Shown in pieces: positions 235 to 36,255 of a DNA stretch of 39,173 nucleotides; position 1 is the stretch's first letter, and each line of letters opens with the position of its first letter. Under the pieces are notes generated by a model. It saw nothing but the letters and a program-made list of their open reading frames with translations, did not search any database and was not told where the DNA came from. Both the position numbers and the translations under genes were made by a program. This DNA comes from a virus, in the IMG/VR virus record IMGVR_UViG_3300003852_000025, positions 1 to 39,173 of that record; one strand, written 5' to 3'.

Positions 235-891
235 ATGACAAAAAAGAAAACACAAAAAGAAACGGCCTATAAGCTGCCTAGAGGCAAAGCATTAGTACTT
301 CGCACATGTGATCAAAACTTACAAAGTAATTACGGTAGCTTTCAATGGCCTTCTTCTGGTCCGGTGAAGTGTGATGATTGGAGCCCACAACCATATTGTG
401 GGCATGGCCTTCATGGGCTGCTTTGGGGGGAAGGTATTGGCGCATTTCTAGCAGGGGATAAAGACGCAAAATGGTTGGTTGTAGAAGTGTCTTTACAAAA
501 AGTAGTAAATATAGACGGCGATAAGATCAAATTTCCATATGGAAACGTTGTATTCTGTGGTGATCAATATGAGGCTACTAAGTTCATAAAGAACCATGGA
601 GGGCAGAATAAAGCTATAGCCTACAGTCTCAATACAGAAAATGCTGGCAATATAGGAGGAGATTATTCAGAGAATATAGGAGGAAGGCATTCAATAAATA
701 TAGGAGGAGAGCACTCAAAGAATATAGGAGGATACTTTTCACGAGCAGCGGCAGGAGAAAGGGGAGTCATAGCATTAGACTGGTATGACAGTGGAAGACG
801 TAGAATCACGGTAGGGTATGTAGGAGAAAATGGAATTGAGCCGAATGTACTTTATCGTTGTGATGGAGAAGGTAAACTTATAAAAGCATAA
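235..891 (+). CDS. Repeat-bearing conserved phage/bacterial protein
   Basis: A 218-aa protein with SD AAAGGA ahead of the ATG. The N-terminal part (about 1-125) carries CGHGLHGLLWGEG, KWLVVEV and VVFCGD. From memory this matches a conserved family in actinobacteria and phages in which a variable array of short repeats separates this domain from a C-terminal domain ending in a GYVGENGI-like stretch; here that stretch is at about 193-200. The repeat zone (about 139-168) has four NIGG units with 8-residue period, where relatives as I recall them mostly use an A-T-A-G type unit. Family function is not known to me. It may be distantly related to DUF7666-type proteins, which share the domain-repeat-domain layout, but that link is a guess. 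Confidence 0.6.
   Translation: MTKKKTQKETAYKLPRGKALVLRTCDQNLQSNYGSFQWPSSGPVKCDDWSPQPYCGHGLHGLLWGEGIGAFLAGDKDAKWLVVEVSLQKVVNIDGDKIKFPYGNVVFCGDQYEATKFIKNHGGQNKAIAYSLNTENAGNIGGDYSENIGGRHSINIGGEHSKNIGGYFSRAAAGERGVIALDWYDSGRRRITVGYVGENGIEPNVLYRCDGEGKLIKA
649..732 (+). repeat. 24-bp tandem repeat (NIGG units)
   Basis: The 12-mer AATATAGGAGGA occurs four times at exactly 24-bp spacing (649, 673, 697, 721). Each copy encodes N-I-G-G, and the 12-bp spacers between copies are variable. Each copy is also a perfect SD-like AGGAGGA, yet no ATG follows at a useful distance, so these are coding repeats rather than translation starts. Confidence 0.9.
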
Positions 892-3058: not shown

Positions 3059-3244
3059 ATGTTAAAAGGGTTACCGTCCTCAGTAAATCTCTTCCATTGT
3101 TATGAGTGCAAGGAGGACTTTACAGGAGACAAGATGATCTGCTCACCCTCTACCGGCAGACCTTTGAGCTTTTGCAAGAAATGCATGGAAAAACTTCGTG
3201 ATAAAAAACCAAAGAAACCAAAAAACGGAGAACCAAATGACTAG
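3059..3244 (+). CDS. Small zinc-finger protein, 61 aa
   Basis: SD GGAGGTAGGGGA is directly upstream. Two CxxC pairs are visible: CYEC (about 14-17) and CKKC (about 39-42), with a further Cys at about 28, consistent with a single structural zinc. The C-terminus is Lys/Pro-rich (KKPKKPKNGE) and probably disordered. Its stop lies inside the start region of the next gene (8-nt overlap), so the two are translationally linked. Confidence 0.55.
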   Translation: MLKGLPSSVNLFHCYECKEDFTGDKMICSPSTGRPLSFCKKCMEKLRDKKPKKPKNGEPND

Positions 3245-3674
3245 AGAACAGATAGTCGCAGCAAACACAGAAGAGTTACAAAAATTTGCGAAGGAAGTTA
3301 ATCTTAAAATAACAAATAACACTGAATGCAAAAATTGTTTAGAATGCATTCTGTGTAATAACTGTTTCAATTGTTTGCACTGTACCACGTGCGGTTACTG
3401 TATAAATTGCCTACAGTGCAGTATTTGTGCGTATTGTGAATTGTGTTTGAGTTGCACTAATTGCAGTGACTGCAAATATTGTTGCGGTTGTGCGTACTGT
3501 GTACGCTGCACCAATTGTTTCAATTCCATCGGGTTATTGGGGGCAGAGTATGTCTTTTGTGGGGTACAGCTCACAGAAGATGAATATATGAATGCGATTA
3601 ATAAGATGACCCAAGGAATTGGCACGCCTTTTGTGGAACAAAAAAAGGGTGCAGGTACTACAACCACCAATTAA
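3237..3674 (+). CDS. Cys-triplet repeat protein (Cxx)22
   Basis: The ATG at 3237 has SD GGAGAACCAA. The 145-aa product begins MTREQIVAANTEELQKF, then from residue 31 to 94 has Cys at every third position without exception (22 Cys, plus one extra). Superimposed is a 12-residue period of the form C-L-x-C-x-x-C-x-(Y/N)-C-x-x, five copies. After the array comes AEYVFCGVQLTEDEYMNAINKM, which aligns with the C-terminal half of the gene at 3901; the N-terminal MT(R/K)EQIVAA also aligns. The protein is therefore a small two-part scaffold with a Cys array inserted. No family recognised. A metal-loaded or disulfide-laddered fold, such as a narrow helix with three residues per turn, is plausible inference. 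Confidence 0.75.
   Translation: MTREQIVAANTEELQKFAKEVNLKITNNTECKNCLECILCNNCFNCLHCTTCGYCINCLQCSICAYCELCLSCTNCSDCKYCCGCAYCVRCTNCFNSIGLLGAEYVFCGVQLTEDEYMNAINKMTQGIGTPFVEQKKGAGTTTTN
3327..3518 (+). repeat. 36-bp coding repeat giving CxxCxxCxxCxx
   Basis: Sixty-four codons with TGT/TGC at every third codon. Both Cys codons are mixed irregularly and the spacer codons vary, so the periodicity is held at protein level and is not a recent DNA slippage product. Twelve-residue units start with CL at about residues 34, 46, 58 and 70 and with CC at 82. Confidence 0.9.
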
Positions 3675-3682
3675 ACTGCCCA

Positions 3683-3880
3683 ATGTCAAAACAAGAGAAA
3701 CCCAAATGTGTCTTGGTAGGCACAGATGGTAACGTGTTTTTTATCATAGGCAAAGTCTGTAAGACTCTCAAAAATGCAAAGTTAACAGACCGAGCCGCTG
3801 AATTTCAAAACAAGGCACTTAAAGCTTCATCTTATGATGAAGTGTTGCAATTGTGTTTTGATTACGTTGATGTGCAATAA
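3683..3880 (+). CDS. Conserved small phage protein, 65 aa
   Basis: The product reads MSKQEKPKCVLVGTDGNVFF..., then a helix and a final SYDEVLQLCFDYVDVQ. From memory, short proteins with the LVGTDGNVF and SYDEVL signatures are common in phages and mobile elements of Gram-positive bacteria, with no function assigned. There is no strong SD at this ATG, so it may depend on ribosomes leaving the Cys-repeat gene 8 nt upstream. Confidence 0.6.
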   Translation: MSKQEKPKCVLVGTDGNVFFIIGKVCKTLKNAKLTDRAAEFQNKALKASSYDEVLQLCFDYVDVQ

Positions 3881-3900: not shown

Positions 3901-4152
3901 ATGACAAAAGAGCAAATTGTGGCAGCTAGCCCAAGGGAATTGAGTGCACTGGTACAGGAGAGTATTGACTCTTATACCAATCACTCAACTCCCCAACCCT
4001 TCTCCGGCCATCCGCGAATGGATGAATACATCTTCTGTGGGGTAAGCCTCAACACAAAAGAGTGCATAGAGGCCATCAGAAAACTTGAGATGGCCTATTA
4101 TGAGCTGGTGGAGGCAACATCTGGAGGGGCAAATGGCGACAAGATACCGTAG
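3901..4152 (+). CDS. Repeat-less paralog of the Cys-triplet protein
   Basis: The 83-aa product begins MTKEQIVAASPRELSAL and carries DEYIFCGVSLNTKECIEAIRKLEM. Both ends align with the gene at 3237 (MTREQIVAA..EEL and AEYVFCGVQLTEDEYMNAINKM), but in place of the Cys array there is only a short Pro/Ser-containing linker. SD AAAGGTG is upstream. It is probably a duplicate that shows the ancestral scaffold. Function unknown. Confidence 0.6.
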   Translation: MTKEQIVAASPRELSALVQESIDSYTNHSTPQPFSGHPRMDEYIFCGVSLNTKECIEAIRKLEMAYYELVEATSGGANGDKIP

Positions 4153-15223: not shown

Positions 15224-16066
15224 TTAATTAGTTCCTTTGTTGAGAATGCCTTTTAAGGTCTCAAGTATTGCAGTTGGTAATGTGTCTTTATTCTGGGCAA
15301 TGACTTGGGCCGCAGTAAGCAGGTCAAAGTCATGACCTGGGTGGTGTCTAGTCCCAATCCCCGCCCTACCATCCACTAGCTCTAAATTATGGATGTCGTT
15401 ATTCGCTCTATTGCCGTCCTTATGGTGGACAATTTCCCACTCTTCTAAACACCGCCCTAACTGATTCTCCATAACCAAACGATGTTCTAAAATGGTTCCA
15501 TCTGCTCTAGCGTGCGGATGCCCATCTGGAGCAGTACGAAGGATATAACCGTCTCGAGTGCTTCCCACCCAGTTTTCACGTTCTCTTTTTCGCCCATTAG
15601 GCATCAGTTCCCGAAGCGGAATACCTTGCTGATCTATAATCCCAGCCCGTCTTTGCTCAGTATGCCTACTACACATACCTTTATTTATCGGGCGTTTTAA
15701 GCAACCATTCACTACGCACGATACGCCCTCATAACTGGGTTGTTCCTTTGAATAGCCACCATTTGGAATTTCTATACCTAGGTCTATTCCATTACTACGC
15801 TGTTGGTAGTGTGTAGCACATAAACCTAGCCCTTTAGGTCTATTACCACATTCAGGAACTAGACAACGAGCACCAACACCATAACTTCTTACCCGTTTAG
15901 GTTCATACAGAAATTGCCCATTGCGGTCTATTTGACCACGACGGCAAGCCATATAGTGCGTTCGACAAAATCCGAACGCACCATTTTCTGTAGTGTTTGT
16001 GCACCCTTCCATCTTACAAAGGCCGTAATCTGTTTTCTTTTGTTTTCCTGGATGTCTTTTGTTCAT
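15224..16066 (-). CDS. HNH homing endonuclease with three zinc fingers
   Basis: 280 aa. The N-terminal half has three similar Cys/His units: CKMEGCTN..FCRTHY (about 17-37), CLVPECGN..LCATHYQQ (about 68-88) and CVVNGCLK..MCSRHTEQ (about 117-138). The HNH nuclease core (about 198-238) is LEHRLVMENQLGRCLEEWEIVHHKDGNRANNDIHNLEL, with the HH, N and H-N ligands intact. It cuts DNA in a site-specific manner to spread its own gene. The ORF is intact, has SD AGAGG, and is a free-standing insertion between sheath and tube, probably not needed for the virion. Confidence 0.85.
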   Translation of the reverse strand: MNKRHPGKQKKTDYGLCKMEGCTNTTENGAFGFCRTHYMACRRGQIDRNGQFLYEPKRVRSYGVGARCLVPECGNRPKGLGLCATHYQQRSNGIDLGIEIPNGGYSKEQPSYEGVSCVVNGCLKRPINKGMCSRHTEQRRAGIIDQQGIPLRELMPNGRKRERENWVGSTRDGYILRTAPDGHPHARADGTILEHRLVMENQLGRCLEEWEIVHHKDGNRANNDIHNLELVDGRAGIGTRHHPGHDFDLLTAAQVIAQNKDTLPTAILETLKGILNKGTN

Positions 16067-33300: not shown

Positions 33301-36255
33301 TCACCGAGAAATCACACTCTTACCTATACTGGTCAATTTTGCTAGTAAATCTTTCGGAAGGGAAGAACCTTCTGCGTGTAAAACACCTAGTGCGGCTAAT
33401 GATGCCAGGACGTGGGGGTGGGTGGCAATCAGATCTTCTATTAATCCGGCCTGTTCCCCCTGCATTTCCTTACGTTTTATATCCCGCCTAGCCATTACAG
33501 AAATAGCTTCAGCAGCAATAGCTGCACCTAACACATGTGGAGCACTAACTTCTGCAGTCTTAAAAAAGATATCGCCTACACTTCTATTGTGAACAGCGGA
33601 CCACAAATAGGGGTCTGCCTCTACTAGATCAGGAACATCACTTAAACACCCTATTGCATTGCGAAGATATCCATTATATGCAGCAGATAATTTCTGCATA
33701 AATGGATGAGAAGAGGTCTTCAATAAAGGGGCCTCATCTTTGGGGCTGCCCATAATAGTAATCTTAACCATTCTTCTCTTAGCTACTGGCTCTAATGCGC
33801 TACGCCCCTCTAAAAAGGGCATCAATAGCTTTTTAATCACATCGCTAAAATGACCAGACCCCATATCTGCAGGAGATTCATCTTCATCTGTATGAGGGAA
33901 CACAATACCTTTATTATCCAATTCATCAGCTAAAGGTTTATTCCCCATACTGATAATTGTTATACGCTGGAACTCACGTGGGCGTAGAAACATACCCATC
34001 ATAGTAGGTGTAGAGAGAGCTTCACTTAAATCTCGTCCACCCAAAGTATCCAAAATATCATTAGGGATGTCGTCTTTAGCTGGTATAGCTTTAGAACCAA
34101 ATTGTGACGGTATAACATCCTTCTCTATTTCTCCAGATTTGATCTCAGCAGCAGACTTAACTCGTGGAAGTAATGTACCTACAGAAGCTGCCTTTTCCAT
34201 GGGCATCTCCGTATAACCATCTTCTTCTGCCACTTGCCAGGAAGGAATTGTTTCACCGGAGAAAGAGTTAGAAGCTAATTTAGCCATTACCTTGGCTGTC
34301 TTATCCGCACCAATAAACACAAAAGAGATATCAAAGAATCTTGGATAGTCATTGATAGCGCACACTTTACGCCCGTCAGGAAGAATCTTATTTAATTGTT
34401 TACGTAAATGAGCACAATAGTCATTTCTAGTAATTGAAACACCACGAATAGGATTTTTCTTATGCGCAATTAAAATAGCTTCTCCAGGACTCTTATGTAT
34501 AGACGGATCAAAAGTAGTCTTAGCTTCTTCATACTTTGACAGATCAAGGCAAATACTACAAGTATCAAACGGGACTTTGCAATTATGTACGGCCAACCCC
34601 TCAGCCACATAACTATCATCGCCCTCAACCGAAAAATTAAATACATCGCCGTCATAAACAGATTCTTCTATTTCCAGTATTGGGGCCATCAAATATGTCG
34701 CACCCTCATGGTCATAAAAAAATCGCTGTCCCCTCACCTTACTAGATACATATATGCCTGTCTTATGCGTATATGGCTGAAGAGCAACTGAATAATCTGT
34801 ACCCACCCATACTTGGTACTCCACAGTATCTTTACGCACTACTGACTTCTCAGAAGGACGATGTTCTATTTTATTTATTGACGCAATGATTTCGCAACGA
34901 GCAAGCATAGTGAACAGTTGTTCAGACAAACGTTCTGATGCAGTAGAAAAATAAATAGACCCTTTATACACTCCGCCATCCCCATCTAAATAAGCACCTA
35001 AGAAAGCTAATTGCCGTTCAGCAGGGAGCAAAAGTACTTCCTTAGAAACTACTTTTGTCTTAGCTCCAGAGCCACAAAACTGTAGACACTTATCGGCTAA
35101 ATCCTTGTTAACTATGGTTACATATCGTCCACCACGTTCAGGCACTTCGTGCTGCCAACTTACCTTTGCCCCTAATTTACGCCCTAACTGCTCTATCTCA
35201 TTAGCAAGGTCTTTTTCTAGAAAATTTAATGAGAAAGTTATCTGTTCTAATGGCCTATCATTGTAATTGCCTACATGTCCTTCAGCTAAATAAAACCCTA
35301 AAAATCTAGCCTCATCTATAGATGAAATAACATTACTACACCCCTCAAGAACTGGAAAAGCTAAATAATCTCCTACATTAACCTCATCAGCTCGCCTCCA
35401 TTCAAATTGATAAGTAGGAACTACCATACAACCTGAACATCCTTTAGATTTACTCTGTACAAAAGGCGTACAATGCCTTTGTCGTCTGCTCTTATTATCC
35501 TGTTCTATAGACGGATTACATTTAAGCTGCGCCTCATCAACTAACCATAATGGATGTTCATCAGTAAGACTAAGTGTTCTTCGAAATCCGTAAACATTAA
35601 AAGTATAAAGAGTACCCTTATATTTACGTGTCATAAGTTTAGATACGTGTTGCACCTTCCCTGTATGTGATATTACAGCGTCCCCTATCTGCACACGTTC
35701 TATCTCAATAGTTTGCCCCAAATCATTATATATTCTAGTCCCAGGAGGGCTACAGCCCATTGACACATCGCAGTATATTCCTTGATCTACCTTATCACAA
35801 ACACTAGTGGCACCAAATTGAGCTGCTTTACTTCTATCTATCTCCACAACAAGCTCAACACGTTTCATCAAATCGTGCCAAGTCGAAAGTAATATTGTTC
35901 CAATACTTTCGTTTATATTCTTGTTCTTATGGTGTGTGTAGATGCCTGCGGTGCGGAAAGTCTCATATCCATACGCTGGACCTTTATGGATCAAAGATGC
36001 TTCTGGAAATGCATCTCCATTAATATTACTAGACCAATATTCACTAGCACCTAGTGCATTTACAAGCAGTACAATCTTTTGTGGATTTGGCCGTATAGTC
36101 TCGAGCAATTGCTTAACCGGAGAAAGTAAAGGGGCTGCAGTCTTTCCCATACTAAAAAAAGACGCAGCCTTCTCCATCTCCCCCGGTTGAAAGACCTCTA
36201 CTAGCCTTTCCCCGTCTTGCCGACGTGCCTGAAACTGACAAACCTTAATGATCAC
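33301..36255 (-). CDS. Prohead maturation protease-like protein, intein-containing
   Basis: 984 aa as translated (GTG start), 593 aa after splicing. The N-extein has VLLVNALGASEYWSSNINGDAFPE (the N-x-N-G-D-x-F signature of prohead proteases), YETFRTAGIYTHHKNKNINESIGT (likely catalytic His, 108 or 109), LMKRVELVVEIDRSKA, and GIYCDVSMG, whose Ser165 matches the catalytic (L/V)S(I/M)G of HK97-type S78 and related proteases. The intein follows three residues later. The C-extein begins CKVPFDTCSIC and adds about 425 residues, much more than a usual protease (about 200), perhaps a fused core protein. It processes capsid, scaffold and internal proteins. Confidence 0.7.
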   Translation of the reverse strand: MIIKVCQFQARRQDGERLVEVFQPGEMEKAASFFSMGKTAAPLLSPVKQLLETIRPNPQKIVLLVNALGASEYWSSNINGDAFPEASLIHKGPAYGYETFRTAGIYTHHKNKNINESIGTILLSTWHDLMKRVELVVEIDRSKAAQFGATSVCDKVDQGIYCDVSMGCSPPGTRIYNDLGQTIEIERVQIGDAVISHTGKVQHVSKLMTRKYKGTLYTFNVYGFRRTLSLTDEHPLWLVDEAQLKCNPSIEQDNKSRRQRHCTPFVQSKSKGCSGCMVVPTYQFEWRRADEVNVGDYLAFPVLEGCSNVISSIDEARFLGFYLAEGHVGNYNDRPLEQITFSLNFLEKDLANEIEQLGRKLGAKVSWQHEVPERGGRYVTIVNKDLADKCLQFCGSGAKTKVVSKEVLLLPAERQLAFLGAYLDGDGGVYKGSIYFSTASERLSEQLFTMLARCEIIASINKIEHRPSEKSVVRKDTVEYQVWVGTDYSVALQPYTHKTGIYVSSKVRGQRFFYDHEGATYLMAPILEIEESVYDGDVFNFSVEGDDSYVAEGLAVHNCKVPFDTCSICLDLSKYEEAKTTFDPSIHKSPGEAILIAHKKNPIRGVSITRNDYCAHLRKQLNKILPDGRKVCAINDYPRFFDISFVFIGADKTAKVMAKLASNSFSGETIPSWQVAEEDGYTEMPMEKAASVGTLLPRVKSAAEIKSGEIEKDVIPSQFGSKAIPAKDDIPNDILDTLGGRDLSEALSTPTMMGMFLRPREFQRITIISMGNKPLADELDNKGIVFPHTDEDESPADMGSGHFSDVIKKLLMPFLEGRSALEPVAKRRMVKITIMGSPKDEAPLLKTSSHPFMQKLSAAYNGYLRNAIGCLSDVPDLVEADPYLWSAVHNRSVGDIFFKTAEVSAPHVLGAAIAAEAISVMARRDIKRKEMQGEQAGLIEDLIATHPHVLASLAALGVLHAEGSSLPKDLLAKLTSIGKSVISR
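34582..35754 (-). mobile_element. 391-aa intein with LAGLIDADG endonuclease
   Basis: Begins at Cys168 of the host protein (CSPPGTRIYNDLG, block A), has TDEH (residues 64-67 of the intein, block B), and ends with VYDGDVFNFSVEGDDSYVAEGLAVHN before Cys+1 (blocks F and G). Two LAGLIDADG helices, FLGFYLAEGH (151-160) and FLGAYLDGDGG (251-261), make it a full-size homing intein. All splicing residues (Cys1, TxxH, His-Asn, Cys+1) are present. An extra cluster C79, C95, C106, C109 could bind zinc. Confidence 0.92.

What the first reader, a model, noticed from the sequence alone, without database searches (positions are those of the whole stretch)
3237..3674. Protein with Cys at every third residue for 64 residues
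Seen directly: 22 Cys in exact period 3 (residues 31-94), with a superimposed 12-residue unit C-L-x-C-x-x-C-x-(Y/N)-C-x-x repeated five times. TGT and TGC are mixed and spacers vary, so selection holds the pattern. I know no named family with such an array; metallothioneins and zinc ribbons have irregular spacing. A fold with three residues per turn would place all Cys on one edge, making a ladder for metal ions, Fe-S units or disulfides. That structural idea is inference.
Basis: partly seen in the sequence, partly recalled or inferred. Interest (0 to 1): 0.88.

Follow-up and report, generated by a model that had tools for sequence, protein, structure and literature searches.

The report
Cysteine-lined mini-solenoid in a phage protein
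A phage protein carries a cysteine at every third position for 64 residues; the pattern is real and kept by selection in similar phage arrays, and it is most likely the cysteine-packed core of a very thin coiled rod that recurs, unnamed, in many phages and some bacteria.

Summary
In detail: P0001 (145 aa, window 3237-3674 +) has 22 Cys at exact period 3 (residues 31-94), plus one off-register Cys at 83. The overlaid 12-residue unit is only weakly supported. Arrays of this kind recur in many phages and some bacteria, so it is not unique, but Pfam and NCBIfam hold no model for it; PHROGs groups some as phrog_15341, function unknown. In orthologous Campylobacter-phage arrays, Cys codons show 46 synonymous and 0 amino-acid changes in pairwise comparison. 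A missing Cys is usually replaced in register, and in the curated list always by a small or hydrophobic residue. Elsewhere the Cys register continues a Ser/Val/Thr repeat of 12 residues, and Cys arrays swap with pentapeptide-repeat solenoids before one C-terminal domain. The best reading is a thin beta-solenoid with inward Cys, like beetle antifreeze protein, used as a rod between an N-terminal helical piece and a C-terminal cap that phages share with Patescibacteria. A next-door paralogue lacks the array. The fold is inferred: AlphaFold2 was not confident. Metal, disulfide or free thiol is undecided.

The parts
3237..3674 (+). Gene of the 145-aa Cys-array protein (P0001)
   Evidence: identical copy in IMGVR_UViG_3300027896_000011
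3227..3231 (+). GGAGA, ribosome-binding-site-like, 5 nt before the ATG
   Evidence: sequence
3237..3326 (+). N-terminal piece (residues 1-30), predicted two short helices; shared with the neighbour paralogue
   Evidence: AF2 pLDDT 75-81 for residues 1-20; BLASTP with 3901-4149
3327..3518 (+). Cys array: 22 Cys at period 3 (residues 31-94), one off-register Cys (residue 83)
3531..3611 (+). C-terminal cap (residues 99-125), GLLGAEYVFCGVQLTEDEYMNAINKMT
   Evidence: phage-cap HMM built without P0001: E=0.0026 in 31,519 ORFs, 5.3e-5 among window ORFs
3059..3244 (+). Upstream 61-aa gene with two CxxC pairs (zinc-ribbon-like); its stop overlaps the start of P0001
   Evidence: Pfam hits below cut-off
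3683..3880 (+). Downstream 65-aa gene, phrog_1933, unknown function
   Evidence: E=7.8e-17
3901..4152 (+). Paralogue (83 aa): same N-terminal piece and cap, no Cys array
   Evidence: E=2e-6 and 7e-5 in a two-sequence comparison

Best explanation
P0001 is a small, probably cytoplasmic phage accessory protein. Its Cys-x-x array folds as a very thin beta-solenoid of about 12 residues per coil (four sides of three residues) with every register Cys pointing inward; 22 Cys make about 5.5 coils. The array works as a rigid rod or scaffold between an N-terminal helical piece and a C-terminal cap. It is one of several interchangeable solenoid types (Cys-triplet, pentapeptide, Ser/Val/Thr or Ser/Ile) that phages place in such proteins. 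The near-absolute use of Cys suggests that thiol chemistry stabilises the tiny core, most likely soft-metal thiolates in the reducing cytoplasm, or disulfides once exposed to an oxidising medium. Shown: selection on Cys (in phage relatives), register-keeping substitutions by small or hydrophobic residues, in-register continuity with Ser/Val/Thr 12-mers in other proteins, module exchange with pentapeptide repeats in another array family, and cap homology among phages. Inferred: the fold of P0001 itself, the inward Cys, the rod role and the state of the thiols.
For: Campylobacter-phage orthologues: 0 amino-acid and 46 synonymous changes at Cys codons, against 105 and 93 at other codons, pairwise counts. 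In 51 arrays, 22 of 29 gaps of 4-9 residues keep the period-3 register, and in a curated de-duplicated list 22 of 22 in-register substitutes are S, G, A, V, L or F. In four mycobacterial proteins and phage locus L255 the Cys array continues, in the same register, S-V-S-T or S-I-S-V repeats of 12 residues; Ser in the Cys register 12-15, in each of the others 0-3. One C-terminal domain in 77 viral loci is preceded by Cys arrays (24 unique), pentapeptide repeats (39 unique) or other repeats. A profile of the family has beetle antifreeze protein 1ezg as best PDB sequence hit, aligned in register with its C/S/C/A core. The cap is shared with other phage arrays and, through them, with Patescibacteria. 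The next-door paralogue lacks the array.
Against: AlphaFold2 gave pLDDT of about 29-46 in the array of P0001 and 58 on average for a Patescibacterial relative; Foldseek found nothing significant for either. AF2 can also invent beta-solenoids for repeats (PMC11795689). The 12-residue periodicity is weak in P0001, and the other arrays peak at 15 residues. Array lengths differ by 21 residues (L252/L256) and 45 residues (WX1/CP21), not multiples of 12. The 1ezg match is driven by composition (bias 42.6). The 22/22 list was hand-curated from the hits plus a few.
Confidence: 0.6

Rival explanations
1. Metallothionein-like store or buffer: a flexible chain that folds around soft metal ions (Zn, Cu, Cd) or Fe-S clusters, with no fold of its own.
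For: 23 Cys in 64 residues, a density like that of metallothioneins (general knowledge). Cys codons are under strong constraint in relatives. AF2 does not fold the array confidently.
Against: Missing Cys are replaced in strict register by S, G, A, V, L or F, never by His, Asp or Glu in the list. Exact period 3 is not needed for a flexible chelator. Pentapeptide repeats without Cys fill the same slot in related architectures.
Confidence: 0.15
2. A single 3-10 or polyproline-type helix with three residues per turn, all Cys on one edge, forming a thiol, metal or disulfide ladder.
For: The only strict unit is the triplet: length differences are multiples of 3, not 12, and the 12-residue signal is weak.
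Against: In-register continuity with clear 12-residue Ser/Val/Thr repeats; exchange with pentapeptide solenoids; long isolated 3-10 helices are not known to be stable (general knowledge).
Confidence: 0.12
3. Disulfide-laddered extracellular rod, like beetle antifreeze protein in chemistry as well as shape, acting in the virion or after lysis.
For: The register matches 1ezg; an even number of Cys per proposed coil.
Against: No signal-peptide-like start in P0001 or its relatives by eye; the gene lies in a block of small genes of unknown function, apart from the structural module.
Confidence: 0.08
4. Precursor of a thiazole-modified (heterocycloanthracin-type) peptide.
For: That family has repeated Cys-Xaa-Xaa (PMC2674419), and our pattern scan did recover one (L200, TIGR03601 E=4.9e-16).
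Against: P0001 has no TIGR03601 match at E<=0.5, the array is followed by a conserved cap rather than being the C-terminus, and the neighbours that were searched show no maturation genes (the maturation models themselves were not run).
Confidence: 0.02

Closest known systems
Beetle antifreeze protein TmAFP (PDB 1ezg; PF02420)
   Same: Residues at period 3 in a 12-residue coil; C-S-C-A in the same register as C-C-C-C here; best PDB hit of the family profile, E=0.0019 with strong composition bias.
   Different: Only two of four register positions are Cys; no TxT face; no PF02420 match for P0001 or its relatives; likely a cytoplasmic phage protein; no relation by descent shown.
Phage Cys-array proteins grouped as phrog_15341 (Campylobacter phages CP220, CPt10, CP21 and others)
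   Same: Same Cys-x-x array; P0001 matches at E=7.2e-6.
   Different: The match covers only the array (residues 29-94); N-terminal domain and cap differ. Function unknown there too.
Patescibacterial Cys-rich repeat proteins with a GL-K-Y-I-N-E-Y cap (L242, L258-L291)
   Same: Cys arrays ending in the same cap; phage caps against Patescibacterial caps: hhalign probability 98.6.
   Different: Longer, mixed Cys/Ser/Asn/Tyr repeats, often with zinc-ribbon-like ends; the Patescibacterial HMM alone does not reach P0001.
Pentapeptide-repeat solenoids (PF00805)
   Same: Fill the same slot before the same C-terminal domain in phage proteins.
   Different: Five-residue period, Leu/Phe and Ala core, no Cys.
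Heterocycloanthracin/sonorensin precursors (TIGR03601)
   Same: Repeated Cys-Xaa-Xaa (PMC2674419).
   Different: Leader peptide and C-terminal core; P0001 has no match.

Membership tests
Insect antifreeze protein repeat (PF02420 / TmAFP) | Match to the family model | tested here: not met
   No PF02420 hit for P0001 at E<=1 or for the ten other array proteins scanned at E<=0.5
Insect antifreeze protein repeat (PF02420 / TmAFP) | 12-residue coil with inward residues at period 3 | tested here: inconclusive
   Period 3 met; 12-residue periodicity weak for P0001, better for its family; register agreement with 1ezg
Insect antifreeze protein repeat (PF02420 / TmAFP) | Ice binding, disulfides | not testable with these tools
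   Needs protein
phrog_15341 | Match beyond the array, including the N-terminal DGYYxDSNNNKW domain | tested here: not met
   Match E=7.2e-6 limited to residues 29-94, the array
Array-plus-cap family of phages (L032, L075, L251-L257) | Cys array followed by the GL-xxx-Y-x-N-x-Q-LT-xx-EY cap | tested here: met
   HMM from other phage caps finds P0001 at E=0.0026 in 31,519 ORFs, in the right place
Patescibacterial Cys-rich repeat family | Same cap by direct profile search | tested here: inconclusive
   Direct Patescibacterial HMM does not list P0001; linked only through other phage caps
Heterocycloanthracin (TIGR03601) | Leader and core matching the model | tested here: not met
   No match for P0001
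Heterocycloanthracin (TIGR03601) | Cyclodehydratase, dehydrogenase and scaffold genes in the genome | not tested
   Only selected window genes were searched in Pfam/PHROGs; models TIGR03603-5 were not run on the 168-kb contig
Pentapeptide repeats (PF00805) | Five-residue A(D/N)LXX period | tested here: not met
   Period is 3; no Pfam hit
Metallothionein | Binds soft metals through a thiolate cluster | not testable with these tools
   Cys density fits; no Pfam hit

The most novel reading that the evidence does not exclude
The arrays are a new protein architecture: an all-cysteine-core mini-solenoid in which four inward thiolates per coil hold a continuous column of metal ions or iron-sulfur units, a metal rod made by phages and Patescibacteria.
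Probability: 0.12. Interest if true: 0.92.

Novelty: new variant of a known kind. Interest (0 to 1): 0.6.

Why it matters
A repeat type that is widespread in phages, occurs in Patescibacteria and mycobacteria, and has no Pfam or NCBIfam model and no structure would become a defined class: a thin solenoid whose core is almost pure cysteine. The swap with pentapeptide repeats gives a testable rule for how phages exchange solenoid rods. If the core holds metal, it would be a new way to line up metal sites in a protein.

Tried and rejected
Slippage artefact: rejected, the DNA is not repetitive and Cys codons are under purifying selection in orthologous relatives. Heterocyclic peptide precursor: rejected for P0001. 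AF2 on P0001 with nine sequences and on a Patescibacterial relative with eight: too uncertain to use. Foldseek of both models: nothing below E=0.029. PDB sequence search of P0001 alone: chance haemagglutinin hits, then 1ezg at 0.26. A raw scan for 12 Cys at period 3 returns many low-complexity or wrong-frame stretches, so arrays were filtered by spacer diversity and 12-mer diversity. A collection scan with alignment A1 failed for lack of conserved stretches. Papers on this array in phages: none found in the held library.

Full report
OBSERVATION. Window 3237-3674 (+) encodes a 145-residue protein, P0001, with Cys at 31, 34... 94, that is 22 in exact period 3, plus one Cys at 83 in a spacer and one at 108. 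TGT and TGC are mixed 13:9 and all 12-mers of the array DNA are distinct; Tandem Repeats Finder sees no repeat there. The gene has an SD-like GGAGA five bases before the ATG and overlaps the stop of a 61-aa gene upstream. The window is a virus fragment; a fetched stretch of a 168-kb IMG/VR contig is 100% identical over the 9,671 bases compared, and that contig holds no second run of six Cys at period 3. Lag-12 autocorrelation of spacers is reached by 23 of 500 shuffles for P0001 (uncorrected for nine lags) and by 2 of 500 for six arrays of its family, while the other arrays peak at 15 residues.

RELATIVES. No Pfam or NCBIfam family matches P0001; phrog_15341, of unknown function, matches the array only. 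tblastn finds array proteins in 22 phage records, mainly Campylobacter phages, one group annotated 'insect antifreeze protein'. Those closest to P0001 (L032, L075, L251-L257) share a plan of array and cap GL-xxx-Y-x-N-x-Q-LT-xx-EY, and the complete ones an N-terminal piece. An HMM from eight such caps, P0001 not included, finds P0001 at E=0.0026 among 31,519 ORFs and 5.3e-5 among the window's ORFs. The same cap closes Cys-rich repeat proteins of Patescibacteria: a pattern finds them in 10 of 192 genomes of that phylum, up to ten per genome, and phage caps align with Patescibacterial caps at 98.6% probability. The Patescibacterial HMM alone does not list P0001, so that link is indirect. The neighbouring gene at 3901-4152 has the same N-terminal piece and cap but no array.

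SELECTION. In five orthologous Campylobacter-phage proteins, pairwise comparison of codons gives 0 amino-acid and 46 synonymous changes at Cys against 105 and 93 elsewhere; in a second locus 8 and 33 at Cys against 104 and 24 elsewhere, in a poorer alignment. Pairwise counts are not independent, and P0001 itself has no near orthologue to test. In 51 arrays 22 of 29 gaps of 4-9 residues between Cys keep the register (17 of 24 after removing duplicates and a wrong-strand frame, p=2e-4). In the curated list all 22 in-register substitutes are S, L, G, F, V or A, against 51% of small or hydrophobic residues in spacers. The list was made by hand, with Campylobacter cases added.

WHAT FOLD. Three hints point to a thin solenoid. 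First, four mycobacterial proteins and phage locus L255 have long S-V-S-T or S-I-S-V repeats of 12 residues that run into the Cys array in the same register: Ser occurs 12-15 times in that register and 0-3 times in each of the others. Second, a 96-residue C-terminal domain found in 77 viral loci follows a Cys array in 24 unique cases, pentapeptide repeats in 39 by the regular expression (several of the ten 'other' are pentapeptides too) and other repeats in the rest: there the array occupies the slot of a known solenoid. That domain belongs to another array family, not to P0001. Third, the family profile has beetle antifreeze protein 1ezg as its best PDB sequence hit (E=0.0019, bias 42.6), in register with its C-S-C-A core. 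Direct prediction did not settle it: AF2 gave pLDDT of about 29-46 in the array and 58 overall for a Patescibacterial relative, with no significant Foldseek match, and AF2 is known to produce false solenoids for repeats (PMC11795689). Array lengths that differ by 21 or 45 residues show that the triplet, not the 12-residue coil, is the unit of length change; with four equal Cys sides this does not exclude a 12-residue coil.

MECHANISM. I propose that the array is a rigid, Cys-cored rod joining the N-terminal piece to the cap. Swapping with Cys-free solenoids says that the rod's role does not need thiols; the near-absolute conservation of Cys says that this rod's core does. Soft-metal thiolates are my first guess for a protein without a visible signal peptide, free-thiol packing the second, disulfides the third. 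None of this was tested.

KNOWN OR NEW. Repeated Cys-Xaa-Xaa is known from heterocycloanthracin precursors (PMC2674419); our scan recovered one (L200, TIGR03601 E=4.9e-16) and P0001 is not one. The array type is known to databases as phrog_15341 without function. No paper describing it as a repeat class was found in the held library, which lacks most subscription journals. I call it a new variant of a known kind, the small beta-solenoids.

Noticed in passing
L100, L118, L121 (viral contigs): Array-plus-cap phages with in-frame TGA in the array gene and in other long frames; reading TGA as Gly gives better profile scores than Trp (59.2 against 43.8 bits in L100, 41.0 against 32.0 in L121). Code 25 points to Gracilibacteria/Absconditabacteria hosts, within the bacterial group that carries the cap family.
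   Followed up: partly
window 33301-36255 (-): 984-aa protein interrupted by an intein-like stretch with a LAGLIDADG domain (Intein_splicing just below its cut-off).
   Followed up: no
window 235-891 (+): DUF7666/phrog_18079 protein with an 8-residue NIGGxxSx repeat, another small-period repeat in the same phage.
   Followed up: no
window 15224-16066 (-): HNH endonuclease, possibly a free-standing homing endonuclease among structural genes.
   Followed up: no
L170, L161, L204, L232, L207 (mycobacteria/actinobacteria): Proteins with S-V-S-T 12-residue repeats that grade in register into a Cys array and end mostly in GLRxAVGLRDVHA; no specific family found for L170, the one scanned.
   Followed up: partly
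L300-L376 (viral contigs): One phage C-terminal domain (IPDIHKxIYAA...THCRAGWxVxLAG) preceded by Cys arrays, pentapeptide repeats, DDTVARVLSIA repeats or PERRG repeats: strong repeat-module swapping.
   Followed up: partly
Campylobacter phages, L001 and L292-L299: Cys-array genes at two conserved places: between portal and DNA ligase, and between helicase and metallophosphoesterase.
   Followed up: no
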